Part shown: positions 11,457 to 26,464 of the stretch, piece after piece | Numbering within the stretch: the first letter of the stretch is position 1 | Layout: every line of letters begins with the position of its first letter | Assembly: GCF_900106995.1 (NCBI RefSeq) | Contig: NZ_FNOK01000020.1 | Location: 77,306-141,305, forward strand | Length of the DNA: 64,000 nucleotides | Reading direction: 5' to 3' | From: Saccharopolyspora shandongensis | GTDB lineage: Bacteria; Actinomycetota; Actinomycetes; Mycobacteriales; Pseudonocardiaceae | Position numbers and translations under genes: made by a program | Notes under the pieces: generated by a model | Seen by the model: only the letters and a program-made list of their open reading frames with translations | Told to the model about the DNA's origin: nothing | The model's database searches: none

Positions 11457-11461
11457 CCCGC

Positions 11462-11563
11462 TCGCGAGCGCTGAATCCGCCTCTTACCGGACTCGGCACT
11501 CACGACTGCACGCCCCGAGTCGTGAGCGCTGAATCCGCCTCTAACCGGACTCGGCACTCACGA
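11462..11563. repeat. Tandem pair of long intergenic hairpins
   Basis: Two near-identical copies (11462-11505 and 11520-11563, 58-bp period) each fold into an 18-bp stem with an 8-nt loop (CCTCTTAC or CCTCTAAC). The stem mismatches are C/T or A/G, so they remain G-U pairs in RNA. Outer ends read TCGTGAGC/CACTCACGA (first copy TCGCGAGC). They lie between convergent genes; the last right arm overlaps the TetR stop codon. Likely bidirectional terminators belonging to the dispersed family seen at 14477, 17110 and 26419. Confidence 0.8.
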
Positions 11564-12202
11564 GTGCCACTCGCTCGGCGACAGCGTTAGGGCGCCCGGG
11601 ATCGCGGCGAACGCACGCCGGGCGCAGTCGACCAGGTCGTCGCGGGTGTGCGAATCCTCCCGCGCCAGCCACATCTCCAGCGCACGGTGGAACGCGGCGA
11701 CCAGCAGGTCCATCACCAGGCGGGCGCGCACGTCGGCCTGATCGGGCAGCCCGAAGCGGCGGTGCAGGGTCTCCATCGCGGAACGGGTGGTCCGGGCGCA
11801 GAACTGCAGGCCGTGCGCGTCGATCGACGGCTTCGCGGCGGCCAGGCTCCTGCTGAGCCGCACCCGCTCCGCCCAGCCGTCGTCGGGCATCCGCCGCAGG
11901 GACGCGAGCACCGCGTCCTGCGCGACCTCCAGCAGCGGGCGGTCGTCCGGCTCGCGGGTTTCCAGATCGGCCAGGAACTCCGTCCAGAGGTCTTCGGTCG
12001 GCGCCAGCACCACGTCTTCCTTGCAGCCGAAGTAGCGGAAGAACGTGGTCTTGGAGACCTCGACCGCCTCGCACAGCTCGTCGACCGTCGTGGCGTCGAA
12101 GCCCTGCTCGGTGAACTTCGCCAGGGCGGTGTCGATCATCGCCTGCCGGGTGCGCAGCTTCTTGCGCTCGCGCAGCGAGACGGGGCGGGACGGGGCGCTC
12201 AT
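11558..12202 (-). CDS. TetR/AcrR-family repressor
   Basis: Predicted 214 residues. The N-terminal TetR helix-turn-helix spans about 15-60 (RQAMIDTALAKFTEQGFDA, then TTVDELCEAVEVSKTTFFRYF). The C-terminal ligand domain is of the MftR/SACE_7040 type by appearance. It is divergent from a quinone-oxidoreductase-like gene with a palindromic operator between them, so it probably represses that gene and itself. Its stop codon lies inside a hairpin repeat. Confidence 0.9.
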   Translation of the reverse strand: MSAPSRPVSLRERKKLRTRQAMIDTALAKFTEQGFDATTVDELCEAVEVSKTTFFRYFGCKEDVVLAPTEDLWTEFLADLETREPDDRPLLEVAQDAVLASLRRMPDDGWAERVRLSRSLAAAKPSIDAHGLQFCARTTRSAMETLHRRFGLPDQADVRARLVMDLLVAAFHRALEMWLAREDSHTRDDLVDCARRAFAAIPGALTLSPSEWHS

Positions 12203-12239
12203 CGCGGACAGATTACCCGAGCCCTAGTGCGACTCAGAA

Positions 12240-12269
12240 ACTTATGGTACTCAGTTACATAAGTTACTG
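12240..12269. promoter_or_regulatory. TetR operator between divergent tetR and MDR genes
   Basis: The AT-rich divergent promoter region carries an 18-bp imperfect palindrome, CAGTTACATAAGTTACTG (12252-12269), and an overlapping pair ACTTATG (12240-12246) / CATAAGT (12258-12264). Size, symmetry and position fit a TetR dimer site controlling both genes. Confidence 0.65.
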
Positions 12270-12291
12270 AATCACTTTCATGCGAGGAACC

Positions 12292-13218
12292 ATGCGCGCA
12301 CTGCTCGTCGACCGCTCGGCACCCGGCGGCCTCCGCCTCGGCCAGGCCCCGGACCCCGCTCCCGCGCCGAACCAGGCGCTGGTGCGGGTCACGGCGACCT
12401 CCCTGAACTACGGCGAAGTGCGGCACATCATCGAGGAATCCCCGGACGGCAGCGTCCTCGGCTGGGACGCGGCGGGAGTCGTCGAGCGCGCGGCGGCCGA
12501 CGGCTCCGGCCCGGCCGAAGGCACGCCGGTCGTCACCCTGGCCCCGGACGGCGCGTGGGCCGAACTCCGAGCCGTCGACACCCACCGGATCGGCACCGTC
12601 CCGCAGGGCGCCGACCCCGGCGCGATCAGCACCGTTCCGGTAGCCGGCGCGAGCGCGTTGCGCGCGCTGCACCGGATGGGCCCGATCCTCGGCAAGCGAG
12701 TGCTGGTCACCGGCGCCACCGGCGGGACCGGGCGATACGCCGTGCAGCTGGCGCGGATGGGCGGCGCGCACGTCACCGCGTCCACCGGGAATCCGGCCGC
12801 GCACGGCGACGGGTTGCGCGCGCTCGGCGCGCACGAGGTGGTGTCCGACCCGGCCGAATCGGCCACAGTGGACGGTGTGGTCGACCTGGTCGGCGGCGGG
12901 CAGCTGGTGGCCGCCCACGACCGGCTCGCCGAGGGCGGCACGCTGGTGGCGGTCGGGCACCTCACCGGCGAGGGCGAGAACTTCCCGTTCGGCGCGCTCT
13001 TCGGCGCTCCGGAGCGGCACGACCGCACGATCGCCACGTTCTTCCTGCTCCGCTGCACCGGCCTGGCGCCGGACCTGACCTGGCTGGCCGAGCGCATCGC
13101 GACCGGCGATCTCGACCCGCAGGTGTCCTGGCGCGGCGCCTGGGACCGCGCCCCGGAAGCGATCGAGGCGCTGCTCGGCCGGACCCTGCACGGCAAGGCG
13201 GTCCTCGAAATCGGCTGA
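12292..13218 (+). CDS. MDR-family NAD(P)H:quinone oxidoreductase-like protein
   Basis: Predicted 308 residues of the zinc-independent medium-chain dehydrogenase/reductase family. It has the GroES-like N-terminal half ([10 protein letters not shown] near residue 37, GWDAAGVVE near 61) and a Rossmann half with [20 protein letters not shown] (about 138-157). The Zn-binding Cys/His set of alcohol dehydrogenases is absent, so NADPH-dependent reduction of a quinone or enone is likely. ATG 12292 has GAGGA (12284-12288) upstream. Divergent TetR control is expected. Confidence 0.88.
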
Positions 13219-13238
13219 GGACCACGTAAGTTCGTTGC

Positions 13239-14417
13239 ATGGCAAGGAAGATCGTGGTTATCGGGGCGGGCATCGTCGGGGCGTCGATCGCGGCGCAGCT
13301 GCCTGAGGACGTGTCGGTGACGGTGCTCGACCAGGGCCCGTCCGGTCGGCTGCGGGGTTCGACCGGGCACGCGCCCGGTTACGTGGGCCTGCTCAACGAA
13401 GTACCGGTGTTGACCGAGCTGGCGCGGGCGAGCGCCGAGCTGTACGACGACCTCGAACTCGACGGCGTGCAGGGCTTCGACCGGGTCGGCGGCGTAGAGG
13501 TCGCCAGCACGCCGGAAACCGCCGCCAAGCTGGAAGAACGGGCGGAACTGGCGGTGCGGGCCGGACTTCCGCACCGGCTGCTCGACGCCGCCGGGACCGC
13601 GGCACTGGCGCCGGATCTGATCGATCCGGCCCAGTGCCTCGCCGGCCTGCACTACGCCCAGGACGGCACCGCGCGTGCCGGTGTCATCACCGGGGCGTTG
13701 CGGAAGCGCAGCCGCGCCCGGTTCGTCGACGACGCCGCGGTCGTCGGCATCGAGCTCCGCGGCAACCGCGTGTCGGCGGTGCGGACCGCGACGGAGTCGT
13801 TCCCGGCGGACGACGTCGTGCTGGCCTCCGGCATCTGGGGTTCGCTGGTGGCGTCGCTGGTGGACCAGCGGATTCCGCTGACGCCCGTCGCGCATCCCTA
13901 CGTCTACGGCCCGAAGCGGGCGGAATCCGCGGCGCGGACGCCGTTCGTGCGCTGGCCCGAGCAGCACGTCTACGCGCGCGACCACGGCGATCGCTTCGGC
14001 CTCGGCACCTACGACCACGCCCCGCAGCCGGTCCCGCTCGACAGGCTCGGCCGGACCGCGGAACAGCCGTGGCCCGGCGAGCTGTTCGACGATGCCGTCG
14101 GACGCGCGATGGCACTGCTGCCGGAGGCGAACCGCTTCCCCATCGCCGAGCGGCTCAACGGGGTGTTCTCGATGACGCCCGACAACCTCCCGCTCCTCGG
14201 CGCCTTCCCGGACATCACCGGGCTCTGGTCGGCGGTGGCGATCTGGGTGACCAGCGCCGGCGGCGCGGCGCGCGGCCTGGTGGAGCTCATGTGCGACAAG
14301 CCGTCGAGCTTCCCCGACGTGGACCGCCTCCGCCCGGACCGCTTCGCCGGCCAGGACCCGGCGGACCTCGAAGCCCGAGCGCTGCGGCTGTACCGCGACA
14401 TCTACGCCAGCCTGTGA
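13239..14417 (+). CDS. FAD-dependent oxidoreductase, dimethylglycine/sarcosine-oxidase-like
   Basis: Predicted 392 residues of the DAO family. The FAD-binding VIGAGIVGASIAAQL is at about 6-20. STGHAPGYVG near residue 45 matches the SxHAPG motif in which dimethylglycine oxidase attaches FAD covalently to His. The C-terminal MTPDNLPLLG and WVTSAGGAARGLVELM also follow that enzyme. Full dimethylglycine oxidase has a further ~400-residue folate-binding GcvT half, which is missing here; the gene ends cleanly before a terminator, so this is a stand-alone flavin domain, not a truncation. Substrate is probably an N-methylated amine or amino acid. It starts 20 bp after the MDR gene and may share its transcript. 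Confidence 0.8.
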   Translation: MARKIVVIGAGIVGASIAAQLPEDVSVTVLDQGPSGRLRGSTGHAPGYVGLLNEVPVLTELARASAELYDDLELDGVQGFDRVGGVEVASTPETAAKLEERAELAVRAGLPHRLLDAAGTAALAPDLIDPAQCLAGLHYAQDGTARAGVITGALRKRSRARFVDDAAVVGIELRGNRVSAVRTATESFPADDVVLASGIWGSLVASLVDQRIPLTPVAHPYVYGPKRAESAARTPFVRWPEQHVYARDHGDRFGLGTYDHAPQPVPLDRLGRTAEQPWPGELFDDAVGRAMALLPEANRFPIAERLNGVFSMTPDNLPLLGAFPDITGLWSAVAIWVTSAGGAARGLVELMCDKPSSFPDVDRLRPDRFAGQDPADLEARALRLYRDIYASL

Positions 14418-14419
14418 GT

Positions 14420-14461
14420 CGTGTGTGTTTTGTGCTGCTATGGCAGCACAAAACACACACG
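14420..14461. terminator. Perfect 19-bp hairpin after the flavoprotein gene
   Basis: Arms 14420-14438 and 14443-14461 are perfectly complementary with loop TATG; the apex reads GCTATGGC, the reverse complement of the GCCATAGC apex in the next hairpin. It begins 3 bp after the flavoprotein stop. Confidence 0.85.
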
Positions 14462-14476
14462 GGCCCCCGCACCGGC

Positions 14477-14520
14477 TCGTGAGCACTTCGGGCTGCCATA
14501 GCGGCCCGAAGTGCTCACGA
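14477..14520. repeat. Dispersed hairpin element, convergent terminator for leuA
   Basis: An 18-bp stem (14477-14494 / 14503-14520, one G-U position) with loop GCCATAGC and outer ends TCGTGAGCACTT / AAGTGCTCACGA. It lies 9 bp beyond the leuA stop and shares ends and apex with the elements at 17110 and 26419. Confidence 0.85.
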
Positions 14521-14529
14521 TGCAAGGCT

Positions 14530-16245
14530 TCAACCCGCGGCGGTCATCACGGCGCGCAAGCTCGACGCGATGACCGAGACATCGATCCCGACCGCCCACG
14601 CGGTGCCCTCCGCCGTGCGGTACTCCAGGTACGTCGCGGCGCGCGCCGCGCGTCCCGGCTCGATCGACTGCTGGACGAGGTTCACGATGTCCACCGTCCG
14701 ATCGTGCTCCTCCAGCACCTGCACCAGCGCGGACACGGCACCTTCCGCGGTCACCTCGTGCGTCGTGGCCTCGCCGCCGATCTCCAGCGTCGCGGTCAGT
14801 CGGTCACCCGACGGCCCGTGGCCCACCGACCAGCCCGTCAGCGCGATCGACGGATCCGGGTTCTCCAGGTAGGTCGCGGAGAACAGCTTCCACAGCGTGG
14901 CCGCGTCCGCCTCCGCTCCGGTCCCGTCGGTGTGCCGCTGGACCACTTGCGCGAATTCCGCCTGCAACCCGCGCGGCAGGTCCAGCCCGTGCTCGGTCTG
15001 CATGAGGTAGGCGATGCCGCCCTTGCCGGACTGGCTGTTCACCCGGATCACCGCCTCGTAGTCCCGGCCGACGTCGTGCGGATCGATCGGCAGGTACGGA
15101 ACCTCCCAGCGCACCTGGGATTCCGGGACTCCGCTCTCCCGCGCGCCCAGCGCGTGCCGCTGGAACCCCTTCCGGATCGCGTCCTGGTGCGTCCCCGAGA
15201 ACGCGGTGTAGACGTACTCGCCGACGTACGGGTGCCGTTCGTGGACGCCCATCCGGTTGCAGTGCACGACGGTGTCCCGGACCGAATCGATGTCCGACAG
15301 GTCGATCATCGGGTCGACGCCCTGCGAGTACAGGTTCAACGCGAGCGTGATCAGGTCGACGTTCCCGGTCCGCTCGCCGTTGCCGAACAGGCAGCCCTCG
15401 ACGCGCTGCGCACCGGCGAGCACCGCCAGCTCCGCGCACGCGACCCCGGTGCCCCGGTCGTTGTGCGGGTGCACCGACAGGATCACGTCGTCGCGCCGGT
15501 CGAGGTTGCCGCTCAGGTGCTCGATCTGGTCGGCGTACACGTTCGGCGTCGCGACCTCGACCGTCGCGGGCAGGTTGATGATCACCGGGCGGTCGGCGCT
15601 CGCGTCCCACAGGTCGATCATCATGTTGCAGACCTCGATCGCGAAGTCCGGCTCGGTCAGGTTGAAGACCTCCGGGGAGAACTCGTACCGGATCCCCGGC
15701 CGGTCCCCACCGCAGCGGAGCACGTCCTCGCCGGCCTTCCGGATCAGCTCGCGCAGGTCGTCCCGGCCGGCGCGCAGCACCGCGTCCCGCCACAGCGGCG
15801 CGGTCGGGGTGTACATGTGAACGACGACCCGGTCCAGACCGGCGATCGATTCGAAGGTGCGCTCGATCAGATCCCGGCGAGCCGGGGTGAACACCGCGAC
15901 GGTGACGTCGTCCGGCACCAGGTCCGCTTCCGCCAGCAGCCGGACGAAATCGAAGTCGGTCTGGGACGCGGACGGATATCCGACCTCGATCTCCTTGTAC
16001 CCGATCGAGAGCATCATCTCGTAGAAGCGCCGCTTGCGCGCCGGATCCATCGGTTCGGCCAGCGCCTGGTTGCCGTCGCGCAGGTCGACGGGAACCCACA
16101 GCGGCGCCTGCGTGATGCGGTTCCGCGGCCAGGTCCGGTCGATCTCGGGGACGGCGACGCGGTCGAACGCGCTCCGGTAGCGGTGGTGGGGCATTCCCGA
16201 CGGCTGCTGCGGGTTCCAGCGCGCGGGGATGTGGTGGGAGGTCAT
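14530..16245 (-). CDS. leuA: 2-isopropylmalate synthase
   Basis: Condenses acetyl-CoA with 2-ketoisovalerate, the committed step of leucine synthesis. The 571-residue protein is of the long actinobacterial type. The TIM-barrel catalytic domain has [13 protein letters not shown] (about 54-66), YTPTAPLW, the metal/substrate motif [10 protein letters not shown] and the [11 protein letters not shown] signature. The C-terminal LeuA regulatory domain (about 430-565) provides leucine feedback. ATG 16245 follows GGAAGG by 5 nt. It is alone in its operon and divergent from the GntR gene. The leader contains an 11-bp inverted repeat that could act in attenuation. Confidence 0.96.
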
Positions 16246-16293
16246 GTCTGCCTTCCGGGTTCGGACGGTCTCCACCGGCGCGCGGCAACACCC

Positions 16294-16331
16294 CGCGACA
16301 GGGGGCGCCGGTCCGGTCAGCCCCTGTCGCG
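16294..16331 (-). promoter_or_regulatory. Inverted repeat in the leuA leader
   Basis: CGCGACAGGGG (16294-16304) and CCCCTGTCGCG (16321-16331) are perfectly complementary across a 16-nt loop, about 50 nt upstream of leuA. It could be a leader hairpin or a protein-binding site. I see no leucine-rich leader peptide and no T-box features. Confidence 0.45.
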
Positions 16332-16381
16332 GCCGCTAAGGCCGCGAGCTCCCAACCACATGACAGGCAACGTACAATACG

Positions 16382-16402
16382 TCAGGTCCTCAGACAACCT
16401 GA
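16382..16402. promoter_or_regulatory. GntR operator candidate
   Basis: TCAGGT (16382-16387) and ACCTGA (16397-16402) flank 9 bp in the promoter of the GntR gene, downstream of a TACAAT -10-like hexamer. The position suits autorepression. Confidence 0.5.
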
Positions 16403-16420
16403 TAATTCGGGAGGCTGTTC

Positions 16421-17104
16421 GTGTCGCTGCGTCGATACCCGCTGTCGGAGCAGGCCACCGAGGCGATGTTGCGGCGCATCGGTTCCGGCGACTGGCCGAT
16501 CGGCGAGAAGATCCCCAGCGAGACCTCCCTCGCCGCCGAGTTCGGAGTTGGCCGGTCGACGGTCCGGGAGGCGGTCCGCGAGCTCGCCGGCCGCGGGCTG
16601 CTCGAATCCCGCCACGGCTCCGGCGTCTACGTCATCCGGATCGATCCCGTCGAGGACTGGGCGACGACCGTCCGCAAGGCGGTGATCTCGGACGTGGCGG
16701 AGGGCCGCATCGCGGTGGAGGTGGAGGCCGCCCGCCTCGCGGCCGCGAAGCGCACCGACGAGGACCTCGCCGCGATCACGGCGGCGGCCACCCGGCGCGA
16801 GGCGCTCCAGCACGCGACGCCGGAGGAGTTCGTGGACGCCGACCTCGAGTTCCACCGCGCGATCGCCGGGGCGGCGCACAACACGATCATCACCGGCCTG
16901 TTCGATTCCCTGGCCGAGCGCGTCCGCGAGGCGATGCTCGACATGCTGGGCCTGATGCGGGAATCCGACGCGCAACGGCCGGTGGACCAGCACGAGCACC
17001 AGGAGATCGCCGATGCGATCCGGGCAGGCGACCCCGAGGCCGCGGGCCGGGCAGCCCGGAACCACCTCGCGAAGATCCTCTCCTACGTCCGCCCGGAACC
17101 GTGA
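16421..17104 (+). CDS. GntR/FadR-family regulator
   Basis: Predicted 227 residues. The winged helix (about 8-70) shows IPSETSLAAEFGVGRSTVRE, then AVRELAGRGLLESRHGSGVYV. The C-terminal FCD all-helical ligand domain (about 85-220) has the expected metal-binding Asp/His pattern (DADLEFHRAIAGAAHN; HQEIADAIRAGD). FadR-type regulators respond to small carboxylic acids. GTG 16421 has GGGAGG upstream. It is divergent from leuA, but whether it regulates leuA is unknown. A 22-bp hairpin follows. Confidence 0.9.
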   Translation: MSLRRYPLSEQATEAMLRRIGSGDWPIGEKIPSETSLAAEFGVGRSTVREAVRELAGRGLLESRHGSGVYVIRIDPVEDWATTVRKAVISDVAEGRIAVEVEAARLAAAKRTDEDLAAITAAATRREALQHATPEEFVDADLEFHRAIAGAAHNTIITGLFDSLAERVREAMLDMLGLMRESDAQRPVDQHEHQEIADAIRAGDPEAAGRAARNHLAKILSYVRPEP

Positions 17105-17109
17105 GCACC

Positions 17110-17159
17110 GGCTCGTGAGCACTTTGGAGCGTCATAGCGCTCCAAAGTGCTCACGAGCC
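17110..17159. terminator. Perfect 22-bp hairpin between convergent genes
   Basis: Arms 17110-17131 and 17138-17159 pair perfectly with loop TCATAG. It carries the family ends GGCTCGTGAGCACTTTGG / CCAAAGTGCTCACGAGCC and an apex close to that at 14477. It lies between the stops of the GntR and MMPL genes and would terminate both. Confidence 0.88.
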
Positions 17160-17163
17160 TTCG

Positions 17164-19344
17164 CTACCCGACCGGATCGGTCTGCCGGACCGGGATCGGG
17201 GTGGTCGGCGGGTCGGTGCGGTGCATCAACCGGGACGGCCACCAGGTCGCCCGGCCCAGGAGGGACAGGGCGGCCGGGAGGATCAGGACTCGGATCACGA
17301 AGGCGTCCAGCAGGACCGCGACCGCCAGGCTGAAGCCGATCTGCTTCATCTCCGCCAGGTGCAGGAACATGAAGGTGGCGAACACCGTGACCATCACGAT
17401 CGCCGCGCTGGTCACGACCTTCGCCGACTGCCCGACGCCCTGCAGGACCGCCTGCCGGGTGGGGACGCCGCGCAGCGCGGCCTCCCTGATCCGGCTCACC
17501 ACGAACATCTGGTAGTCCATCGACAGCCCGAAGAGGATGACGAACAGGAACAGCGGCACCCGCGAACCGATCGCGCTGGTGGCGCTGGGATCGAAGCCGA
17601 ACAGCGTCGAGGCCAGCCCGAACTGGAAGAAGATCACCAGCAGCCCCATCGACGCCGCCGCGGACAGCAGGTTCAGCGCGACCCCGACCAGCCCGATCAC
17701 CACCGAGCGGAACACGACCACCGACACCACGAACGTCAGCACCAGCAACGCGGTGATCACCAGCGGCAGCTTGCCGTTCTGGTGGGCCAGGTAGTCGACG
17801 TCGTGCGCGACGTCCCCGCTGACCGCGACCTCGACCCCGGGCAGCGCGCGGAAGGCCGCGGGCACGTAGTCGGACCGCAGGTGCGTCAACGACCGGGCCG
17901 CCTCCGCCGAGCTCGTCTTGAACGGCACCGGGATCTGCAGCATGCTCACCCGCCCGTCCCACGAGGCCTGCGGCTGCGCAGGTGCCATGAACAGCGGATC
18001 GCCCTGGACGCGCCGGCCGAGATCCGCCAGCGCGGCGCGCACCGCCCCGGCATCGGCCGGTGCGGCGCGGACGACGACGCCGTGCCGGGTCCGCAGCTCG
18101 GGGAAGGCTGCCGTCATCCGGTCGAAGGTCCGCATCGCGGGGATCTCCCGGGAGTGGCTGTCCTGGTTGAGCACCCGCATCTGCATGCCGAGCACCGGTA
18201 GCGAGAGCAGCAGCAGGATTCCCACCGAGACGCACAGCGTGAGCACCGGGCGCTTCGCCGCCGGGCGCAGCATCGCGTCCCAGATCCGTCCACTTCGGAC
18301 CTTCTTAAGCTTCGCGGGCTTGGCGCGGCGCTCGGCGCGCCGGCTTAGGACCACCAGCAGCGCGGGCAGCGCGGTGACCGAGCTGACCACCGAGACCAGC
18401 ACTACGGTGATCGTGCCGGTGGCCAGCGACGAGAAGATCACGTCGGCGGCCAGGTAGAGCGTCGCGGCGGAGACGATCACCGCGATGCCGGAGACGACCA
18501 CGGTCCGCCCGGCGGTCTCGGCAGCCAGGCCGACGATCGCGGCCGAACCCAGTCGGCCGTCCGCCCGCTCACGTTCTTCCCGCTCCCGCTTGAGGTAGAA
18601 CAGCGCGTAGTCGACGCCGACCGCCATGCCGATCAGCAGGATGATGTTGTTGCCCACGCCCACGTCCGGCACCACGTGCGACACCAGCATCGACAAGCCC
18701 ATGGCCGCCGCGATCGACGAGAGGGCGAGCAGCAGCGGCACCCCGGCCATCAGGACCGAGCCGAAGACGACCAGCAGCGTGATCAGCGTGACCGGCAAGG
18801 TGATCGCCTCGGACAGCGCCAGGTCGTCGCCGCGCTGCTGATCGACCCCCGCGCTGGTGGAGACGTTGCCGGTCTCCGCAACGAGCAACAACGGGTGGCG
18901 CTGCTGCACCTGCTCGGTCAACGCGAGCAGCGAATCGATCTGCTCGTCGGCCGCCTCGTCGGGCCCCTTCATGGTCACTTCGACCCGCAGCATCGAGCCG
19001 TCCGCCGAACGCACCGGCGGCGCAACGGTTTCCACCGCGGGCAACGCCTCCATCCGGCTCGCCACCTCAGCGGCCGCCGCCTCGGCGCGGGCCTGGTCCA
19101 GCGGGCCGGAGCGGGCGGCGATGGTGATCTGCTCGATCGGTTTGCGCTGCAGACCGCCGGCCGCGGCCATCGCGTCGGCGCGCCCTGCCTCGCCGACCCA
19201 GTGGTCGGCCACCGTCGCGCTGTTCGTGCCGGCCAGCGAGCCCGCGCCGAGGCAGAGGGCCACGAACACGAACCAGCCGATCAGGGCGCGCACCGGATGC
19301 TCCGCGCTCCACCTCGCCACCCTGACGGTCCTCGACTTCCCCAC
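17164..19344 (-). CDS. MMPL/RND-family membrane transporter
   Basis: Predicted 726 residues, 12 TM segments in two halves, each with a large extracytoplasmic loop after TM1 and TM7. The proton-relay motifs are present: GMAVGVDYALF in the first half (about residue 238) and FGLSMDYQMFV in the second (about 600). The length fits the small actinobacterial MMPL group, which exports lipids or drugs. It starts next to a palindrome of the TetR-operator type, yet no TetR gene is adjacent; the nearest upstream genes encode a small membrane protein and an ArsR-like regulator. Confidence 0.9.
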   Translation of the reverse strand: MGKSRTVRVARWSAEHPVRALIGWFVFVALCLGAGSLAGTNSATVADHWVGEAGRADAMAAAGGLQRKPIEQITIAARSGPLDQARAEAAAAEVASRMEALPAVETVAPPVRSADGSMLRVEVTMKGPDEAADEQIDSLLALTEQVQQRHPLLLVAETGNVSTSAGVDQQRGDDLALSEAITLPVTLITLLVVFGSVLMAGVPLLLALSSIAAAMGLSMLVSHVVPDVGVGNNIILLIGMAVGVDYALFYLKREREERERADGRLGSAAIVGLAAETAGRTVVVSGIAVIVSAATLYLAADVIFSSLATGTITVVLVSVVSSVTALPALLVVLSRRAERRAKPAKLKKVRSGRIWDAMLRPAAKRPVLTLCVSVGILLLLSLPVLGMQMRVLNQDSHSREIPAMRTFDRMTAAFPELRTRHGVVVRAAPADAGAVRAALADLGRRVQGDPLFMAPAQPQASWDGRVSMLQIPVPFKTSSAEAARSLTHLRSDYVPAAFRALPGVEVAVSGDVAHDVDYLAHQNGKLPLVITALLVLTFVVSVVVFRSVVIGLVGVALNLLSAAASMGLLVIFFQFGLASTLFGFDPSATSAIGSRVPLFLFVILFGLSMDYQMFVVSRIREAALRGVPTRQAVLQGVGQSAKVVTSAAIVMVTVFATFMFLHLAEMKQIGFSLAVAVLLDAFVIRVLILPAALSLLGRATWWPSRLMHRTDPPTTPIPVRQTDPVG

Positions 19345-19486: not shown

Positions 19487-19720
19487 TCAGCCGACGCTGC
19501 GCAGCAGCGACTCGACCTCCTTGAGTCGCCCGTTCATCTCGGCGATCTCCTGGCGCAACTCCTGCTGCTCGGCGGTCGCCCGTGCCGCGAACTCGCGGTA
19601 CTCGGCCATCGCCTCGGCGTCGGCCCGGTGGCGCAGCATCCGGAAGTAGGCGATGAAGCCGATCGTGATGCCGGCGACGATGATCAGGACGATCGCGATG
19701 CCGACCACGGCGTTGGTCAT
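19487..19720 (-). CDS. Small membrane protein with coiled-coil tail
   Basis: Predicted 77 residues. One N-terminal transmembrane helix (about 4-27, VVGIAIVLIIVAGITIGFIA) is followed by a charged heptad-like helix (about 30-75, EYREFAARATAEQQELRQEI) suited to a coiled coil. Its ATG overlaps the stop of the upstream ArsR-like gene (ATGA, 19717-19720), so the two are translationally coupled. Function unknown; a membrane partner or sensor for the regulator is plausible. Confidence 0.75.
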   Translation of the reverse strand: MTNAVVGIAIVLIIVAGITIGFIAYFRMLRHRADAEAMAEYREFAARATAEQQELRQEIAEMNGRLKEVESLLRSVG

Positions 19721-20049: not shown

Positions 20050-20137
20050 CAACCCACCCCGATCCGTCAGCGGATACTTTCGCATGGCAGGTGGGACTGT
20101 CATGCAACCAGGGCCGGGTCACCAGGGCGGTCGCCGC

Positions 20138-20194
20138 TTTCGCGCGAAAACGGCGTTCGCCACGCCTGCGGATGACGTCTTCGCGCGAAAACGC
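20138..20194. promoter_or_regulatory. Pair of TTCGCGCGAA palindromes upstream of the ArsR-like gene
   Basis: TTTCGCGCGAAA (20138-20149) and TTCGCGCGAA (20180-20189) are perfect palindromes followed by the same AACG, 42 bp apart (four helical turns). They lie between the ArsR-like start and the end of an MFS gene, where cooperative binding of an autoregulator would be possible. Confidence 0.5.
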
Positions 20195-20231
20195 CATCAG
20201 GAGCTCAGAGCGCCTCCGGGCCCGGTCAGGG

Positions 20232-21401
20232 TCACCGGGCCGTGCGTCCGGCGGCGGTCACGAGCAGCGCGGCCAGGGCCAGGGCGGTGGCGAGGAAGAA
20301 GGCGCTGGGCGGGGAGACCGCGTCGACCATCCGGCCGCCCAGCAGGGCTCCCAGGGCGATCGCGATGTTGAAGACCGCCACGAACAGCGACGATGCCGCT
20401 TCCCTGGCGTGCGGCGCCGCGGCGAGCAGCCAGTTCTGCGTGCTCACCGAAACACCACCGTAGGCGACGCCCCAGACCAGCAGCGCCGCTGTCGCACCGG
20501 CGACGCCGAGCGGCAGGCCGAGCGCGAACACCGCCGCCGCGAGCACCGCCGAGATCAGCAGCAGCGTGCGACGCGGATCGCGGGCCGACGCCGCACCACC
20601 TGCGAAATTCCCCGCCACTCCGGCCAATCCGTACGCCAGCAGGAGCGCACTGATCAATCCAGCGTCCACAGCGGACACTTGTTCCAGCACGGGCCGCACG
20701 TAGGTATAGGCCGCGAAATGCCCGGACACCAGCAGCAGGATGACGAACAGCCCGACCCGCACCGCGCCGCTGCGCAGCAACTGCGGCACGACGCTGAAGC
20801 GCATCGGCTTCTCGGCGGGCAACGGCGGCAGCAGCGCCGCGAGCGCAACCGCCACCACCAGCGACACAACGCCCATGACGGCGAACGACGCGCGCCAGCC
20901 GCCGAGCTCGCCGATGAACGTCCCCGCCGGAACGCCGAGCACCGAGGCCACCGCGATCCCGCTGAAGATCAGCGACGTCGCAGCGCCCACCGACCGCTCC
21001 GGCACCAGCCGCACGGCCAGCCCCGCCGCGATCGCCCACACCCCGCCGATGGACACGCCGACGAGCACCCGAAGCGCGACGAGCAGCGGCAGGTTCGGTG
21101 TCATCGCCGAGAGCAGGTTCGCCGAGGCCAGCAAGGCCATCAGCGCGACCAGCACCCACCGCCGGTCCAGCCGCCCGGCGGCGACGGTGAGCAGCGGCGC
21201 GGCGAACGCCGCGATCAGGCCGGGCACCGTCATCGTCAGGCCCGCCGCGCCTTCCGACGCGCCGAGCTCCGCGGCGAGCGACGTGAGCAGGCCGACCGGC
21301 AGCATCTCGGTGGTGACCACGGAGAACGTCGCCGCGGCGACCGCCGCGACGGCGGGCCAGCCCCGCACCACGGGCGGGGTCGAGGTGTCGGTCGTTGTCA
21401 T
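20232..21401 (-). CDS. MFS transporter, AraJ/DHA1-like
   Basis: Predicted 389 residues with 12 TM segments. N-terminal TTEMLPVGLL and VPGLIAAFAAPLLTV, the AGRLDRRWV loop and RVLVGVSIGGVWAIAAG are typical of the arabinose-efflux/AraJ exporter group. It is divergent from a LysR gene 87 bp away that is its likely regulator. ATG 21401 is taken; a GTG two codons upstream is possible. Confidence 0.88.
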   Translation of the reverse strand: MTTTDTSTPPVVRGWPAVAAVAAATFSVVTTEMLPVGLLTSLAAELGASEGAAGLTMTVPGLIAAFAAPLLTVAAGRLDRRWVLVALMALLASANLLSAMTPNLPLLVALRVLVGVSIGGVWAIAAGLAVRLVPERSVGAATSLIFSGIAVASVLGVPAGTFIGELGGWRASFAVMGVVSLVVAVALAALLPPLPAEKPMRFSVVPQLLRSGAVRVGLFVILLLVSGHFAAYTYVRPVLEQVSAVDAGLISALLLAYGLAGVAGNFAGGAASARDPRRTLLLISAVLAAAVFALGLPLGVAGATAALLVWGVAYGGVSVSTQNWLLAAAPHAREAASSLFVAVFNIAIALGALLGGRMVDAVSPPSAFFLATALALAALLVTAAGRTAR

Positions 21402-21449
21402 GGTCACAGCCTCGGCGGCCCGCTCACCGGGAACAACGCCGAAGTCCTC

Positions 21450-21459
21450 ATCCTTGGAT
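21450..21459. promoter_or_regulatory. LysR binding-site candidate
   Basis: ATCCTTGGAT is a 10-bp palindrome centred in the divergent MFS/LysR promoter region, about 30 bp upstream of the LysR start, where LysR-type activators usually bind. Confidence 0.4.
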
Positions 21460-21488
21460 TAGCTGTGCTCATCGAGCGGAGGAGGGAC

Positions 21489-22373
21489 ATGGGCGGCTTG
21501 GAGGTGCGGGAGCTGGAGTGCTTCCTGGTGCTCGCCGAGGAACTGCACTTCGGCCGCGCCGGCGAACGCCTCTACGTGTCGCAGAGCCGGGTCAGCCAGC
21601 TGCTGCGCTCGCTGGAGAACCGGCTCGGCGCGCGGCTGATCGACCGCACCAACCGCAGAGTCCGCCTCACCGCGCTCGGCGAGCGCTTCCGCGCCGAGCT
21701 CCGCCCGGCGTACGACGGCCTCAAGGACGTCGTCGAGAGGACCCGAGCCGAGGCCCGAGGCGTGCAGGGCGTGCTGCGCCTCGGCTTCCAGGGCCAGGTC
21801 TCCGAGCCAGTGATGGCCCGGATCGACGCCTTCGAGTCGCGATTTCCCGGCTGCGCCACCGAAATCTCCGAGATCCCGCTGAGCGATCCGTTCGGCGCAC
21901 TGCGCCGCGGCGAGGTCGACGCGGCGATCGTGCTGCTGCCGGTGCAGGAGCCGGATCTCGTGGTGGGCCCGACGTTCTCGCGCCAGCAGCCGAACATCGC
22001 GGTCTCGCTGCGGCACCGCTTCGCCGCCCTGGACTCGGTTTCGGCCGAAGAGCTCGCCGAGTCCGAGCTCATCGCGCCCGCCGAACCGGCGCCGCCCTAC
22101 TGGCGCGACGCCCAAACGCCGCCGCGCACGCCGAGTGGCCGCCCGATCCCGCGCGCGAGCACGATCACCACCCTGCAGGAAGGCATCACCCGCGCCGCCG
22201 CCAACCGCGGCGCGATGCTGCTCTGCCGCCCGTGCGCGATCTCCCACGGCCGCCGGGACATCGCGTTCGTCCCGGTCACCGGCCTGCCGGACTCCGTCCT
22301 CGGCCTGGTCTGGCCGCGCGCCGCGGCGACCGCCCGCGTCCTGGCGTTCGCCGACGTCCTCGCCGACGCCTAG
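21489..22373 (+). CDS. LysR-family regulator
   Basis: Predicted 294 residues. The N-terminal helix-turn-helix (about 5-62) reads LECFLVLAEELHFGRAGERL, then YVSQSRVSQLLRSLENRLGA. A periplasmic-binding-protein-like effector domain follows from about 90. The preceding GGAGGAGGG fixes ATG 21489. It probably controls the divergent AraJ-like exporter. Its stop overlaps the stop of the convergent LysR gene by 3 bp. Confidence 0.92.
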   Translation: MGGLEVRELECFLVLAEELHFGRAGERLYVSQSRVSQLLRSLENRLGARLIDRTNRRVRLTALGERFRAELRPAYDGLKDVVERTRAEARGVQGVLRLGFQGQVSEPVMARIDAFESRFPGCATEISEIPLSDPFGALRRGEVDAAIVLLPVQEPDLVVGPTFSRQQPNIAVSLRHRFAALDSVSAEELAESELIAPAEPAPPYWRDAQTPPRTPSGRPIPRASTITTLQEGITRAAANRGAMLLCRPCAISHGRRDIAFVPVTGLPDSVLGLVWPRAAATARVLAFADVLADA

Positions 22374-23269
22374 CGGCTCGCCAGCTCCCGCGCGACCGCG
22401 TTGGCGGTGCGAGCGAAGGCTTGCACCGCTCCGCTGTTGTCGGCCGCTCGCCAGACCAGGCCGTAGCCGACCGGATCGGCGTCCATGAACCGCACGTACG
22501 AGACGCCGGGCCTGGCGAAGTAGGTGGCGGTGTGCGCCGCACACAGCAAGGCGCCCTTGCCCGCCGCGACGAGCATCAGCGCTTCCTGCATGTTGGTGAC
22601 CGCCGGGCCGCGGCCGATCGGGTGGCCGCTCGGCGTGTGCGTCGGCACGTGGTGTTCCAGCAGGTAGTCCGGCAGCGCGCCGTCGATGGTCAGCAGCGGC
22701 ACCTCGGCGAGGTCCTCCACCGACACGGCGTCCTTGTCGGCCAGCGGGTGATCGGCCGCGATCGCCAGCGTGCGCGGCTCCGTGAACAGGCCCGGGCTCC
22801 CGCTCAGATCGTCCTCGCGCACCGGGAACTCCGTCAGCTGCACGTCGAACTCGCCCCTGCGCAGCTGGCCGTACGGGTCCGCCATCGGCACCTCGCAGAT
22901 CTCCACGGCCAGCTCCGGGTGCTCGGTGTGCATGGCCTCCGCAGCCTTCAACACGATCTCGCCGGCCAGCGGGTTGGAGAAGCCGACGTGCAGCACGCCG
23001 TTGATGCTCCGCGCCTTCGACACGGCACGCGCCAGGGCGGCGTCGATCGCGCGGTGGTGCGGTTCGAGGTCGTCGCGGAGCTGGCGGCCGAGCGGGGTGA
23101 GCGCGACGCGGCGGCTCGTCCGGGCGAACAGCGGCGCGCCGACGCGGCGTTCGAGGCGCTGCACGAGCTGGCTCACCCTGGCCCGCGACAGGCGCATCCG
23201 GTCGGCGGTCCGACCGAAGTGCAGCTCCTCTGCGAGGATCAGGAAGCACTCCAGTTCATCGCGCTCCAT
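22370..23269 (-). CDS. LysR-family regulator
   Basis: Predicted 299 residues. The helix-turn-helix (about 4-61) includes LECFLILAEELHFGRTADRM and LSRARVSQLVQRLERRVGAP, followed by a type 2 periplasmic-binding fold effector domain. It is divergent from the MFS gene at 23393, with a GAAC-rich element between them that also occurs, almost unchanged, upstream of the paralogous MFS gene at 28361. It may therefore control both exporters. Confidence 0.92.
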   Translation of the reverse strand: MERDELECFLILAEELHFGRTADRMRLSRARVSQLVQRLERRVGAPLFARTSRRVALTPLGRQLRDDLEPHHRAIDAALARAVSKARSINGVLHVGFSNPLAGEIVLKAAEAMHTEHPELAVEICEVPMADPYGQLRRGEFDVQLTEFPVREDDLSGSPGLFTEPRTLAIAADHPLADKDAVSVEDLAEVPLLTIDGALPDYLLEHHVPTHTPSGHPIGRGPAVTNMQEALMLVAAGKGALLCAAHTATYFARPGVSYVRFMDADPVGYGLVWRAADNSGAVQAFARTANAVARELASR

Positions 23270-23285
23270 GCGCCACCCTCCCTAT

Positions 23286-23329
23286 CGGTAAGCCTGGTTG
23301 AACGAACGTCGAGTTCTTCGCCGTTGTTC
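23286..23329. repeat. Promoter segment shared with 28254-28297 (copy 1)
   Basis: A 44-bp segment starting CGGTAAGCCTGGTTGAACGA lies between the divergent LysR and MFS genes and recurs with two substitutions at 28254-28297. It contains GAAC/GTTC half-sites and is the likely regulator-binding and promoter region. Confidence 0.75.
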
Positions 23330-23392
23330 CCGGCGCGCGGCGGATCGAGGCTGGTGTCATCCGAAATTCCCCACACCTTTGAGGAATCGCAG

Positions 23393-24760
23393 ATGACTGC
23401 GCGCAACTGGGGCGTGCTGATGGTCCTGTGCGGGGCGATCTTCTTGGAAGGCATCGACGTCGCGATGCTCAACGTCGCGCTGCCCGCCATCCGCGCCGAA
23501 CTCGGCATGTCCACCGGTGAACTGCAGTGGGTGATGAGCGCCTACGTCCTCGGCTACGGCGGGTTCATGCTGGTGGGCGGCCGGGCGGCGGACCTGTTCG
23601 GGCGTCGCCGGATGTTCATCGGCTGGCTCGCCGTCTTCCTGCTCTTCTCCGGCCTGGGCGGGCTCGCCTCCGATGGCTGGATGTTGATCGTCGCCCGATT
23701 CGTGACGGGTGTCGCCGCCGCCTTCATGACGCCCGCCGGGCTGTCCATCATCACCACGAGCTTCGAGGAAGGCCCGCAACGCAACAGAGCCCTGCTCGTC
23801 TACTCCGGTACGGCGGCGGGCGGGTTCTCCATCGGCCTGGTCGTCGGCGGACTGCTCACCGCGATCGGCTGGCGGTGGGTGTTCTTCGCGCCGGTCGCGA
23901 TGTCGTTCCTCATCCTCGTCGGCGCGCTCACCCTGGTGCCCGAGTCACCGCAGCCGGAGCGTCGCGCCGGACGCGTCGACGTGGCCGGCGGCGTCGCCAT
24001 CACCGCCGCCATCGTGCTGCTCGTCCTCGGCGTCGAACGCGCCACGCACACCAGCATCGAATCGACGCTGATCACATTCGCGGCGGGCGGCGCCCTGCTG
24101 GCCGCGTTCGTCGCCGTCGAACGCCGCGCCACCGCGCCGCTGGTGCGGCTGGGCATCTTCCGCAGCGCTTCTCTGCTGCGCACCAACGCCATCGGAATGC
24201 TGCTGTTCAGCGGATTCTTTGGCTTCCAGTTCATGGTGGTGCTGTACCTGCAGGAGCTGCGCGGCTGGTCGACGCTGCAGACCAGCTTCGCGCTGATCGC
24301 GCTCGGCCTCGACGCGGTGCTCGCGCCCACCCTCACGCCCTGGCTGGTCCGGCGGTTCGGCAACGCCCGGCTGATCTTCGGCGGCATGCTGCTCTCCGCG
24401 CTCGGGTACGCGATGTTCCTGCCGCTCGGCGTGGACTGGACGTACGCCGCGATGGCGCCGAGCCTGATCATGCTCGGCGTGGGTTTGGCGCTCGTGTACG
24501 GCCCGCTGACGATCGTCGCCACCGACGGCGTCGAAGACTCCGAGCAGGGCCTCGCCGGCGGCCTGCTCTACACCTCGTTCCAGTTCGGCGCGGCGCTCGG
24601 CCTCGCCGGGGCCGCCGCAGTCAACGTCGCCGCGCCCGGAACGCCGCTCGACGGCTTCCGCGCGGCGCTCGCCGTCCCCTTCGCCGCGGCCCTGATCGCC
24701 ACCTCGATCAGCGCCTTCAGCCTCAGGACCGGCAGGCGCCGGGAACCGATCCCGGCGTGA
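23393..24760 (+). CDS. MFS transporter, DHA2 family (paralogue 1)
   Basis: Predicted 455 residues, 14-TM type. Key segments are FLEGIDVAMLNVALPAIRAE near the start, GGRAADLFGRRRMF (loop 2-3 motif A), TPAGLSIITTSF and FSIGLVVGGLLT (motif C). It is very similar over its whole length to the gene at 28361, including long identical stretches, and shares its upstream element, so the pair arose by a local duplication. Likely an exporter of a small hydrophobic compound under LysR control. A hairpin follows. Confidence 0.92.
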   Translation: MTARNWGVLMVLCGAIFLEGIDVAMLNVALPAIRAELGMSTGELQWVMSAYVLGYGGFMLVGGRAADLFGRRRMFIGWLAVFLLFSGLGGLASDGWMLIVARFVTGVAAAFMTPAGLSIITTSFEEGPQRNRALLVYSGTAAGGFSIGLVVGGLLTAIGWRWVFFAPVAMSFLILVGALTLVPESPQPERRAGRVDVAGGVAITAAIVLLVLGVERATHTSIESTLITFAAGGALLAAFVAVERRATAPLVRLGIFRSASLLRTNAIGMLLFSGFFGFQFMVVLYLQELRGWSTLQTSFALIALGLDAVLAPTLTPWLVRRFGNARLIFGGMLLSALGYAMFLPLGVDWTYAAMAPSLIMLGVGLALVYGPLTIVATDGVEDSEQGLAGGLLYTSFQFGAALGLAGAAAVNVAAPGTPLDGFRAALAVPFAAALIATSISAFSLRTGRRREPIPA

Positions 24761-24771
24761 GCAGCGACGGC

Positions 24772-24800
24772 GCCCCGGTCAGCAGGTGTCCGACCGGGGC
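24772..24800 (+). terminator. Terminator hairpin after MFS paralogue 1
   Basis: GCCCCGGTC (24772-24780) pairs with GACCGGGGC (24792-24800) across an 11-nt loop, starting 11 bp after the stop codon. Confidence 0.7.
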
Positions 24801-24905
24801 CCCCGCACCTTCCCCCCAAGTGGCAGGTGGAGTCTTTCGCGTGCGAGGCCGGCGGCGGAAGAGATCTTCGATGCGGCTTCGCGACGGATTGATAGCCTCA
24901 CGGCT

Positions 24906-25823
24906 ATGGCGAGGCTGGGCGGTTCGGAGTACCCGAGCATCCAGCAGATCCGGTTGTTCTTGCTCCTGGCGGAAGAACTGCACTTCGGCCGCGCCGCGAC
25001 CCGCGCGTTCATGGCCCAGCCCACGTTCTCCCGGCACATCAAGACGCTGGAACGCGACCTCGGGGTGGCCCTGGTCGACCGGACCTCCCCCCGAGTGGCG
25101 CTGAGCGCCGCCGGGGAGGCGATGCTGGAACGGATGCGGGCGGTCGTGGGCGCGATGCAGGAGCTGCGCCGAGAGGCCGACGCGCAGGCCGGCTCCGGGC
25201 GGATCGTGATCGGCTCGTTCGAGGCGATCACCTCGCTGCCGCCGATTCCGGCGATCCTGGACGAACTCCGGCGCCGCCTGCCGCGGCTGGACGTCCAGGT
25301 GTTGCGCACCGGATTCGATGCCACCGAAGCCGTTTCGCGCGGCGACGTGGACGCGGCGTTCCTGTTCCTGCCGGTCCCGAACGGCATCCGGGCGCTTCCG
25401 CTGGACAGCGGCCCGCGGTGCGCGGCGATGCCCGCCGACGACCCGCTGGCCGCCGAGGGTCCGCTGGCGCTGGCCGACCTCGCCGACCGGGAGCACATCG
25501 GCTGGTCGGACCGGATTCCCAAGGTGTACCAGGACTTCTGGGCCGTCGACCCGCGCCCGGGCGGCGGTCCCGCCCGGTACAGCTCGCACGCGATGGGCGA
25601 CTTCGAGAGCGGCCTGCAGGTGATCGCCATGGGCGGCGGGCTGCTCTTCCCACCGGCGGTCGGCCGGGAGCTGTACCCGCGACCGGGAGTGTCCTATGTG
25701 GAGGTCACCGACCTGGAGCCGTGGACGTCCGCGCTGGTCTGGATGCCCGCCAACCACGACAAGCCGTTCGTCGCCGCCCTGCGGAAGGCGGCGCGGGCGG
25801 TCCTGTCCCGCACGTGCGGTTGA
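24906..25823 (+). CDS. LysR-family regulator
   Basis: Predicted 305 residues. The helix-turn-helix (about 9-68) has IQQIRLFLLLAEELHFGRAA and FMAQPTFSRHIKTLERDLGV; the effector domain follows from about 95. No gene is divergent from it, so its target is not evident from position; the DinB gene downstream is convergent. ATG 24906 is the best start for the domain although the Shine-Dalgarno is weak. Confidence 0.9.
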   Translation: MARLGGSEYPSIQQIRLFLLLAEELHFGRAATRAFMAQPTFSRHIKTLERDLGVALVDRTSPRVALSAAGEAMLERMRAVVGAMQELRREADAQAGSGRIVIGSFEAITSLPPIPAILDELRRRLPRLDVQVLRTGFDATEAVSRGDVDAAFLFLPVPNGIRALPLDSGPRCAAMPADDPLAAEGPLALADLADREHIGWSDRIPKVYQDFWAVDPRPGGGPARYSSHAMGDFESGLQVIAMGGGLLFPPAVGRELYPRPGVSYVEVTDLEPWTSALVWMPANHDKPFVAALRKAARAVLSRTCG

Positions 25824-25832
25824 CGGTCGTGC

Positions 25833-26336
25833 TCAGGCCCCGACGACCCCGTCGATGCCCTCCCGCAGGAAATCGGCGTGGCCGTTGTGCCTGGCGTACT
25901 CGTGGATGAGGTGCAGCATCACCAACCGCAGCGACACGTCTTTGCCCCACCTCGGCTGGGGCGCGGTCACGTCGAGCGAATCGGCGGCGGCCTCGATCCG
26001 GCGCGAGTGCTCAACCTCCTCCTGCCACGCGTCGAACGCCTCCGAGCGCGTGGCCGCGCTCGCGTCGTAGGCGGCCTGGAAGTCGCCGTCGTCCGACCAC
26101 ACCAGGGGAATGTCCTCCCGGTTGATCACCCGCCGGAACCAGGTGCGCTCCACCTCGGCCATGTGCCGCACCAGGCCGAGCAGCGAGAGCGTCGAAGGCG
26201 GCATCGACTGCCGCCGCAGGTCGGCGTCGGACAGCCCCTCGCACTTCACGGCCAGGGTGGCCCGGTGGAAGTCGAGGTAGGCCCGCAACATCTCCCGCTC
26301 ACCACCGACAACCGGCGGATCGATCCGCTCCACCAC
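25833..26336 (-). CDS. DinB/DUF664-family protein
   Basis: Predicted 167 residues, a four-helix-bundle DinB-like protein. The three expected metal-ligand His positions are visible in LVRHMAEVERTWF (about residue 56) and HLIHEYARHNGHAD (about 140-153). Actinobacterial DUF664 members include mycothiol-dependent transferases and many of unknown reaction. No substrate can be assigned. It stands alone on the minus strand. Confidence 0.85.
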   Translation of the reverse strand: MVERIDPPVVGGEREMLRAYLDFHRATLAVKCEGLSDADLRRQSMPPSTLSLLGLVRHMAEVERTWFRRVINREDIPLVWSDDGDFQAAYDASAATRSEAFDAWQEEVEHSRRIEAAADSLDVTAPQPRWGKDVSLRLVMLHLIHEYARHNGHADFLREGIDGVVGA

Positions 26337-26418
26337 CGCAACCCCCTCCGTTCGCCGAACGTCCCCAGCTTTCCCGCCCCGACGGGCGAAGTCGAACGAA
26401 TAACCGGGCTCGCCGGCA

Positions 26419-26464
26419 CTCGTGAGCGCTTTGGACTGCCGTAGCGCTCCAAACCGCTCACGAG
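26419..26464. terminator. Dispersed hairpin element after the SMP-30 gene
   Basis: Imperfect stem with outer ends CTCGTGAGCG / CGCTCACGAG, a second block TTTGGA / TCCAAA and apex GCCGTAGC. It lies 23 bp past the stop of the minus-strand SMP-30 gene. The ends and apex place it in the same family as the hairpins at 14477 and 17110. Confidence 0.75.

What the first reader, a model, noticed from the sequence alone, without database searches (positions are those of the whole stretch)
11462..26464. Family of long gene-end hairpins with shared ends, shared apex and variable arms
Elements at 11462-11563 (two copies), 14420-14461, 14477-14520, 17110-17159 and 26419-26464 lie at gene 3' ends, mostly between convergent genes. 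All but the one at 14420 share outer TCGTGAGC (or close) / GCTCACGA ends. All but the tandem pair share an apex close to GCCATAGC or its complement. Arms differ between elements but stay paired, including G-U-compatible changes. Five loci in 15 kb suggest a genome-wide repeat class serving as terminators, possibly spread by a REP-type mechanism.
Basis: partly seen in the sequence, partly recalled or inferred. Interest (0 to 1): 0.7.

Follow-up and report, generated by a model that had tools for sequence, protein, structure and literature searches.

The report
Fixed-length palindromes at gene ends
Many actinobacteria of one family carry tens to hundreds of copies of an exactly 44-letter mirror-symmetric DNA element, mostly just behind genes; it looks like a spreading DNA repeat rather than an ordinary RNA stop signal, and what moves it is unknown.

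Summary
The window has six elements, each 44 bp (11462, 11520, 14419, 14477, 17113, 26420). The genome has 96 TCGTGAG..CTCACGA pairs against 2 for the reversed control. They are one lineage-wide class: the rigid 44-bp form is in 179 of 390 genomes of the family, up to 549 copies, controls 0-1.

They sit at gene 3' ends, most often between convergent genes. But T-runs are missing, and on the transcribed strand G-U (80) and A-C (64) mispairs do not differ significantly, so RNA-hairpin selection is not supported. Geometry is 21+2+21 bp, with an asymmetric AG/CT centre and unlike halves in two genomes tested.

A RAYT origin fails: 11 of 16 copy-rich genomes lack a Y1 transposase. Two sister species share sites (7 of 24 compared) but with different, species-specific arms and mixed polarity, as if overwritten in place. 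In two relatives, inserts split 44-mers at the centre; one insert carries a 44-mer.

Best reading: a DNA-level, REP-like repeat with an unknown mobilising or binding protein. Terminator activity is possible, not shown.

The parts
11462..11505 (.). 44-mer, family B, first copy of a tandem pair, degenerate left end (TCGCGAG)
   Evidence: absent from G017, degenerate counterpart in G005
11520..11563 (.). 44-mer, family B, second copy of the pair, 58 bp from the first; the convergent gene 11558-12202 (-) stops inside its right end in my gene calls
   Evidence: absent from G017
14419..14462 (.). 44-mer with variant ends (TCGTGTG / CACACGG), apex GCTATGGC, 1 bp behind the gene 13239-14417 (+)
   Evidence: present in G017 with the same arms and apex
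14477..14520 (.). 44-mer, family A, apex GCCATAGC, between convergent genes 13239-14417 (+) and 14530-16275 (-); 58 bp from the previous copy
   Evidence: in G017 only AGCTCACGA of the right end remains
17113..17156 (.). 44-mer, family A, apex GTCATAGC; pairing extends to 17110-17159; between convergent genes 16421-17104 (+) and 17164-19293 (-)
   Evidence: shared with G017 with two substitutions inside the 44 bp
26420..26463 (.). 44-mer, family A, apex GCCGTAGC, behind the gene 26487-27413 (-), tandem context
   Evidence: shared with G017 with six substitutions, one compensated pair

Best explanation
The elements are copies of a dispersed, non-coding, REP-like DNA repeat of the family that holds the window genome (probably Pseudonocardiaceae). 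Each copy is a 44-bp palindrome of fixed geometry: two 21-bp halves, with outer box TCGTGAG(T/C)G and, in many genomes, an inner box ending GTT, around a 2-bp centre that in the two genomes tested is nearly always AG/CT. Shown: rigid length, dispersal, placement behind genes, loss of copies between close relatives, and species-specific arms at shared sites with mixed polarity. Inferred: ends, centre and spacing are read as DNA by a sequence-specific protein (recombinase, transposase or similar) that is not a Y1/RAYT transposase; copies spread in lineage-specific bursts and overwrite older copies in place, perhaps through larger inserts that carry a 44-mer and land in the centre of other 44-mers; they persist where they do least harm, behind stop codons. 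Any terminator effect would be secondary.
For: Rigid length: of exact end pairs within 200 bp in 632 kb of G078, 58 are 44 bp, one 43, two 34, and five single chance values; 179 of 390 family genomes hold the 44-bp form, 38 of them with 100 or more copies by my count of the listing, controls 0-1. Centre AG/CT in 58 of 60 (G078) and 49 of 50 (G322, all 50 listed of 549). The two halves differ in composition, 0 of 2000 permutations in each genome. No strand bias: G-U 80, A-C 64, p 0.21; polarity against transcription 24 to 30, p 0.50. Seven of 24 comparable G078 sites hold a 44-mer in G041 too, all with G041-type arms, polarity same at 3 and opposite at 4. Centre-split elements in G313 and G322.
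Against: No transposase, recombinase or binding protein was identified. No target duplication around the bare element, and no clean recent 44-bp insertion was seen; in G017 at least one absence looks like deletion. Between G000 and G017 (about 95% identity) seven of ten compared elements are shared and change by point substitutions, so they are not visibly jumping at that range. Arms do co-vary, which hairpin selection could also explain, and G-U is slightly more common than A-C in the pool, notably G017 39 to 30. The tests of centre and halves cover two genomes; own family A has a different centre (CATA/TATG).
Confidence: 0.5

Rival explanations
1. Bidirectional intrinsic (or hairpin-assisted) terminators: the RNA hairpin made from either strand stops RNA polymerase, and selection keeps the arms paired.
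For: Placement: in G078 27 of 100 convergent, 22 of 378 tandem and 6 of 101 divergent gene pairs hold an exact 44-mer, convergent against divergent p 4.8e-5; strong folds; arm co-variation; at the ctaB-qor site several other species carry unrelated hairpins.
Against: No T-run: 98 of 116 outward 12-nt flanks in G078 have at most two T. None of the consensus terminator-like hits uses the main stem of a 44-mer (one short hit at 14472-14457 touches the 14419 copy). G-U 80 against A-C 64, p 0.21. Fixed length is not needed for a terminator. A convergent pair in G041 has only a 10-bp interval at the G078 site 218806, and some species have no hairpin at ctaB-qor. Own-genome convergent against divergent is only p 0.06. 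REPs have similar placement (PMC3733652, passage).
Confidence: 0.22
2. Static binding site of a chromosomal DNA-binding protein (insulator, roadblock or nucleoid organiser) that is under selection at gene ends and is not mobile; arms co-evolve with the protein's specificity.
For: Two-fold symmetric half-sites, fixed spacing and strongly preferred inner positions; arms uniform within G041 and different from G078 at shared sites; shared elements over 95% identity.
Against: Copy number from 0 to 549 between species of one family, and 0 to 191 within the window's genus; many sites empty in the sister species; the two halves differ, which a simple homodimer site would not need; no protein identified.
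Confidence: 0.2
3. REP elements spread by a RAYT (Tnp1REP-like Y1 transposase).
For: High copy number, extragenic, palindromic, placed behind genes; the own genome has 5 PF01797 matches.
Against: Of 16 searched genomes with 30 or more copies, 11 have no PF01797 match, including G078, G084, G074, G041 and G020. Both ends carry TCGTGAG rather than one GTAG or CGTC tag.
Confidence: 0.03
4. Paired DNA-uptake-type words that happen to form hairpins, as in Neisseria and Haemophilus (recalled; the link of uptake words to terminator hairpins appears in a passage of PMC2267715).
For: Short shared word at both ends.
Against: Solitary TCGTGAG (19) and CTCACGA (30) are fewer than the order-2 Markov expectation (66 and 59) in G078, and the spacing is fixed.
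Confidence: 0.01

Closest known systems
REP elements (GTAG- and CGTC-tagged palindromic repeats; GTAG class with RAYT/TnpAREP transposases)
   Same: Short extragenic palindromes in high copy, mainly between convergent or tandem genes (PMC3733652 passages); arms vary while complementarity is kept (PMC2817692 passage).
   Different: No one-sided GTAG or CGTC tag; both ends TCGTGAG; rigid 44 bp; asymmetric 2-bp centre with two distinguishable halves; no Y1 transposase in 11 of 16 copy-rich genomes. CGTC repeats also lack a dedicated transposase, so that subgroup is nearest in this respect.
Bidirectional intrinsic terminators
   Same: Hairpin between convergent genes, close to stop codons.
   Different: No T-run, fixed length, no significant strand asymmetry of mispairs. 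A study listed in the references of PMC10937400 reports that mycobacterial polymerase needs a U-tract (title seen in a passage).
Sites of 2-bp-core recombination (large serine integrases, IS110-type elements; recalled)
   Same: Long symmetric half-sites around an asymmetric dinucleotide; hybrid halves; inserts at the centre.
   Different: Tens to hundreds of copies per genome; no recombinase tied to them; no recombination product demonstrated.
MITEs
   Same: Dispersed, non-coding, inverted-repeat structure; some copies lie inside larger inverted-repeat inserts.
   Different: No target duplication at the bare 44-mer; no autonomous parent found in the stretches held.

Membership tests
REP (RAYT-associated) | High-copy extragenic palindrome | tested here: met
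   96 in the own genome against 2 control; 7 of 58 exact copies in G078 have their centre in called coding sequence although 86% of the stretch is coding
REP (RAYT-associated) | Conserved GTAG (or CGTC) tag at one end | tested here: not met
   Both ends TCGTGAG; no such tag in the 57 own copies listed. Definition from passages of PMC3733652
REP (RAYT-associated) | Cognate Y1 transposase (PF01797) in the genome | tested here: not met
   Absent from 11 of 16 genomes with 30 or more copies; present in 5, the own genome among them
REP (RAYT-associated) | Composite arrays (BIMEs) | tested here: inconclusive
   Tandem pairs at 58-bp spacing at 11462/11520, 14419/14477 and L073 1650/1708, the last kept in G017; no larger arrays looked for
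Intrinsic terminator | Stable hairpin behind genes | tested here: met
Intrinsic terminator | T-run (U-tract) after the hairpin | tested here: not met
   T counts of outward flanks in G078; scan of window 10000-29000
Intrinsic terminator | Arm changes that keep pairing in the transcript (G-U favoured over A-C) | tested here: inconclusive
   80 against 64, p 0.21, five genomes pooled; no significant excess, a weak effect is not excluded
Intrinsic terminator | RNA 3' ends at the element | not testable with these tools
   No transcript data held
MITE | Target-site duplication | tested here: not met
   Flank comparison for lengths 2-20 in 61 G078 and 57 own elements; one of 38 values stands out (own, length 7, z 2.4) with no exact 7-bp repeat
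MITE | Related autonomous element with the same ends | tested here: inconclusive
   None found in 632 kb of G078 by inspection of solitary ends and close pairs; whole genomes not examined
DNA uptake sequence pairs | Excess of solitary words | tested here: not met
   19 and 30 against 66 and 59 expected in G078
Two-bp-core recombination site | Symmetric half-sites around an asymmetric dinucleotide | tested here: met
   58 of 60 and 49 of 50; own family A differs
Two-bp-core recombination site | Cognate recombinase | not tested
   No recombinase family other than PF01797 was searched
Rfam families | Match at gathering score | tested here: not met
   Only a 6C RNA and a tRNA in the window

The most novel reading that the evidence does not exclude
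The 44-mer is the site of a self-targeting recombination system. Its AG/CT centre is the exchange or insertion point, its two halves are distinct left and right ends, and inserts that carry a 44-mer enter the centre of resident 44-mers. Later recombination between the repeated ends leaves a new or hybrid 44-mer at the same place. The sequence would thus propagate by overwriting its own kind behind genes, homogenising arms within a species while keeping ancestral positions.
Probability: 0.2. Interest if true: 0.85.

Novelty: new variant of a known kind. Interest (0 to 1): 0.6.

Why it matters
If right, a large group of actinobacteria carries a common extragenic element, up to 549 copies per genome, that fails the tests for REP/RAYT, lacks the marks of a standard terminator and was not found described in the papers searched here. 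Its fixed geometry, asymmetric centre and species-specific arms at shared sites point to an unknown DNA-recognising protein, and make the concerted replacement of dispersed 44-bp sequences testable. It also matters for annotation: the elements can supply stop codons (17 of 56 convergent gene ends in G078) and are easily taken for terminators.

Tried and rejected
RAYT/REP: rejected as the general agent, because PF01797 is absent from 11 of 16 copy-rich genomes. DNA-uptake words: rejected, solitary ends are fewer than expected. Target duplication: none convincing. RNA-level selection: no significant G-U excess and no polarity bias. Known RNA family: none for these elements in the window. Autonomous parent in G078: none seen; the reading frame between two identical 44-mers matches AAA_14 (PF13173), not a recombinase. 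Viral carriage: one stretch in IMG/VR, a 44-mer at the end of the held piece. A named-relative search with the LeuA-like neighbour gave distant relatives only, best identity 70%. Patterns in 24 of those named genomes gave 0-4 hits, 13 of 24 with a match; four hits are 44 nt (two Pseudonocardia, one Rhodococcus, one Kribbella, the last not palindromic). Papers: nothing describing these elements in the searches (one search returned none; for the others I saw listings). Passages only were seen of PMC3733652, PMC2817692, PMC2267715, PMC10937400 and PMC8266576. The library lacks most subscription papers, so absence in print is not established.
Full report
Observation. The six elements are present and each is exactly 44 bp. 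As RNA they fold with energies of about -20 to -47 kcal/mol (the 17110 copy with 3 extra bp at each side), z -4.3 to -12.6. A hairpin scan that did not use the end sequence, over 864 kb of the own genome (40 stretches of 20 kb plus the window, out of 10.15 Mb), finds members among 87 strong hairpins of several families. In the whole genome TCGTGAG N20-50 CTCACGA occurs 96 times against 2 for the reversed control; at exactly 44 bp, 84 times against 0. The pattern fixes the ends, so end conservation is partly circular.

Distribution. Of 150 relatives, 71 have a match, strongly in family f1 and near background elsewhere, apart from G091 of another family with a 47-nt repeat. Of 390 genomes of f1, 179 have the rigid-44 form, in 23 of 46 genera; by my count of the listing 38 have 100 or more copies, the largest being G322 with 549, G313 with 491 and G078 with 459; reversed controls are 0 or 1. 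Family f1 contains Actinopolyspora xinjiangensis, because G058 and the genome of the named locus L154 share a hit at the same coordinates. I take f1 to be the GTDB family Pseudonocardiaceae; that name is recalled, not read from a call, and the window's genus is not named. Within that genus (22 genomes) counts run from 0 to 191.

Anatomy. In 632 kb of G078, exact end pairs up to 200 bp long number 58 at 44 bp, one at 43, two at 34, and one each at 71, 79, 90, 108 and 122. Of 60 G078 elements of length 44, 58 have AG or CT at positions 22-23; of the 50 G322 copies listed (of 549), 49 do. Read on the AG strand, left and right halves differ in composition in both genomes, 0 of 2000 permutations reaching the observed difference. 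Outer box TCGTGAGTG and an inner box ending GTT recur in listings of several genera, while the arms between them differ by genus or species. The own genome has family B (CCGG arms around TAAGAA, mostly AG/CT centre; 28 copies) and family A (TTTGG arms, CATA/TATG-like centre; 26 copies). The window's tandem pair is B; the others are A or A-like. The 58-bp spacing of both window pairs recurs at L073 and is kept there in G017.

Placement. With a simple gene caller of my own, 28 of 57 own elements held are convergent, 24 tandem, 3 divergent, 1 genic and 1 at an edge. In G078, 27 of 100 convergent, 22 of 378 tandem and 6 of 101 divergent gene pairs hold an exact 44-mer (convergent against divergent p 4.8e-5, against tandem p 2.2e-8). 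In 864 kb of the own genome the figures are 8 of 137, 6 of 484 and 2 of 138 (p 0.06 and 0.004). In G078, 17 of 56 gene ends next to convergent elements stop at the TGA inside TCGTGAG; they are 17 of the 25 such ends that overlap an element, above one third, p 0.0005. Known REPs are placed similarly (PMC3733652, passage), so position alone does not separate a terminator from a tolerated repeat.

RNA or DNA. If the RNA hairpin were selected, mispairs on the transcribed strand in tandem contexts should be G-U rather than A-C. Pooled over G078, G041, G000, G017 and G322 they are 80 and 64 (p 0.21), and AG/CT polarity against transcription is 24 to 30 (p 0.50). G017 leans to G-U (39 to 30) and G041 has 4 to 1, so a weak effect is not excluded. 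There is no T-run. Arm co-variation is strong in own family B (0.755 against 0.393, z 9.9), clear in own A at 8-20 (0.817 against 0.715, z 5.8) but not at 16-19 alone (z 1.6), and modest in G078 (0.626 against 0.544, z 4.6) and G322 (0.676 against 0.600, z 4.8). Matched arms without clear strand asymmetry fit DNA-level causes: a DNA hairpin, template switching, or replacement of whole halves.

Evolution at short range. G017 is about 95% identical to the window region. Of ten own elements whose site was found in the G017 stretches held, seven are present and three (11462, 11520, 14477) are not. At 14477 G017 keeps AGCTCACGA, the right end, which looks like a deletion. A degenerate version of the 11462 pair is in the 86%-identical G005, so the pair predates its absence in G017. 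Shared copies differ mostly by substitutions: two in 17113, both lowering pairing; six in 26420, including one compensated pair; four in L073:1708, two making and two breaking pairs; one in L073:1650; none in L064; L057 also has a one-base length change.

Evolution at longer range. G078 C1:1-318k is colinear with G041 C5, long blocks mostly at 77-87% identity. Of 29 G078 elements there, 24 had colinear flanks. Seven of these hold a 44-mer in G041 too (139845, 155459, 200087, 233832, 236857, 265780, 280043), all with G041-type arms instead of the G078 ones; polarity is the same at three and opposite at four. The other 17 have no full 44-mer in the G041 interval as printed (long intervals were cut in the printout); some hold remnants (120436, 146430, 244931). 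In the ctaB-qor interval of the 22 genomes of the genus only the own genome shows a 44-mer; several species carry other hairpins there and several none in the stretch printed.

Spread. PF01797 is absent from 11 of the 16 searched genomes with 30 or more copies (G002, G004, G013, G020, G023, G024, G041, G047, G074, G078, G084) and present in G000, G006, G012, G014 and G017, so a RAYT is not the general agent. No convincing target duplication surrounds the bare element. In G078 15 elements were flagged by flank motifs of a longer repeat, some of them (for example 150925) spurious. In 35 G322 stretches holding 39 distinct 44-mers, half-elements end at the centre against insert ends at three loci (L363 right half, L373 both halves, L383 left half). 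In L373 the insert of about 260 bp has TA on both sides and itself carries an intact 44-mer. In G313 the counterpart of the L365 element is split at its centre by a 225-bp insert with 18-bp inverted repeats, and a second 44-mer with a short reading frame lies beside it; G272 has no element there. These inserts suggest, but do not prove, how copies could be overwritten in place with either polarity and with hybrid halves.

Verdict. The pattern is real, widespread in one family and REP-like, but it fails two defining REP features tested and has only positional support as a terminator. The agent is unknown. I rate it a new variant of a known kind, with a smaller chance that it marks a self-targeting recombination system.

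Noticed in passing
window 56291-56365 (-) and 32878-32951 (-): 6C RNA (RF01066) and a tRNA at Rfam gathering score.
   Followed up: no
L054:10531-10576, L055:13874-13915, L053:8732-8779: Another hairpin class of the own genome: a constant core GCAGTTTCAATTGAAACTGC with quite different outer arms in each copy.
   Followed up: no
window 20138-20190; L034:9614-9681; L049:15047-15104; L050:18450-18509: Repeated two-box element with TTTCGCGCGAAA-type palindromes at both ends.
   Followed up: no
window 13304-14267: About 960 bp inside the FAD-dependent oxidoreductase gene 13239-14417 are missing from the matching G017 sequence, where the two sides adjoin.
   Followed up: no
G078 C1:549318-550979 (L234:9318-10979): Two identical 44-mers flank a single AAA_14 ATPase gene, 1618 bp apart.
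   Followed up: partly
G091 C2:346656, 396159, 402271: A genome of another family of the order has its own repeat with the same ends, 47 nt long, GAGGACGA arms and a CCATAGT-like centre, three copies listed.
   Followed up: no
L376 (G313); L373, L363 and L383 (G322): MITE-like inserts sit exactly at the centre of 44-mers, of at least two kinds; one carries a 44-mer itself.
   Followed up: partly
L375:30-73: A contig listed as viral has a 44-mer resembling those of G023, near the end of the piece held.
   Followed up: partly
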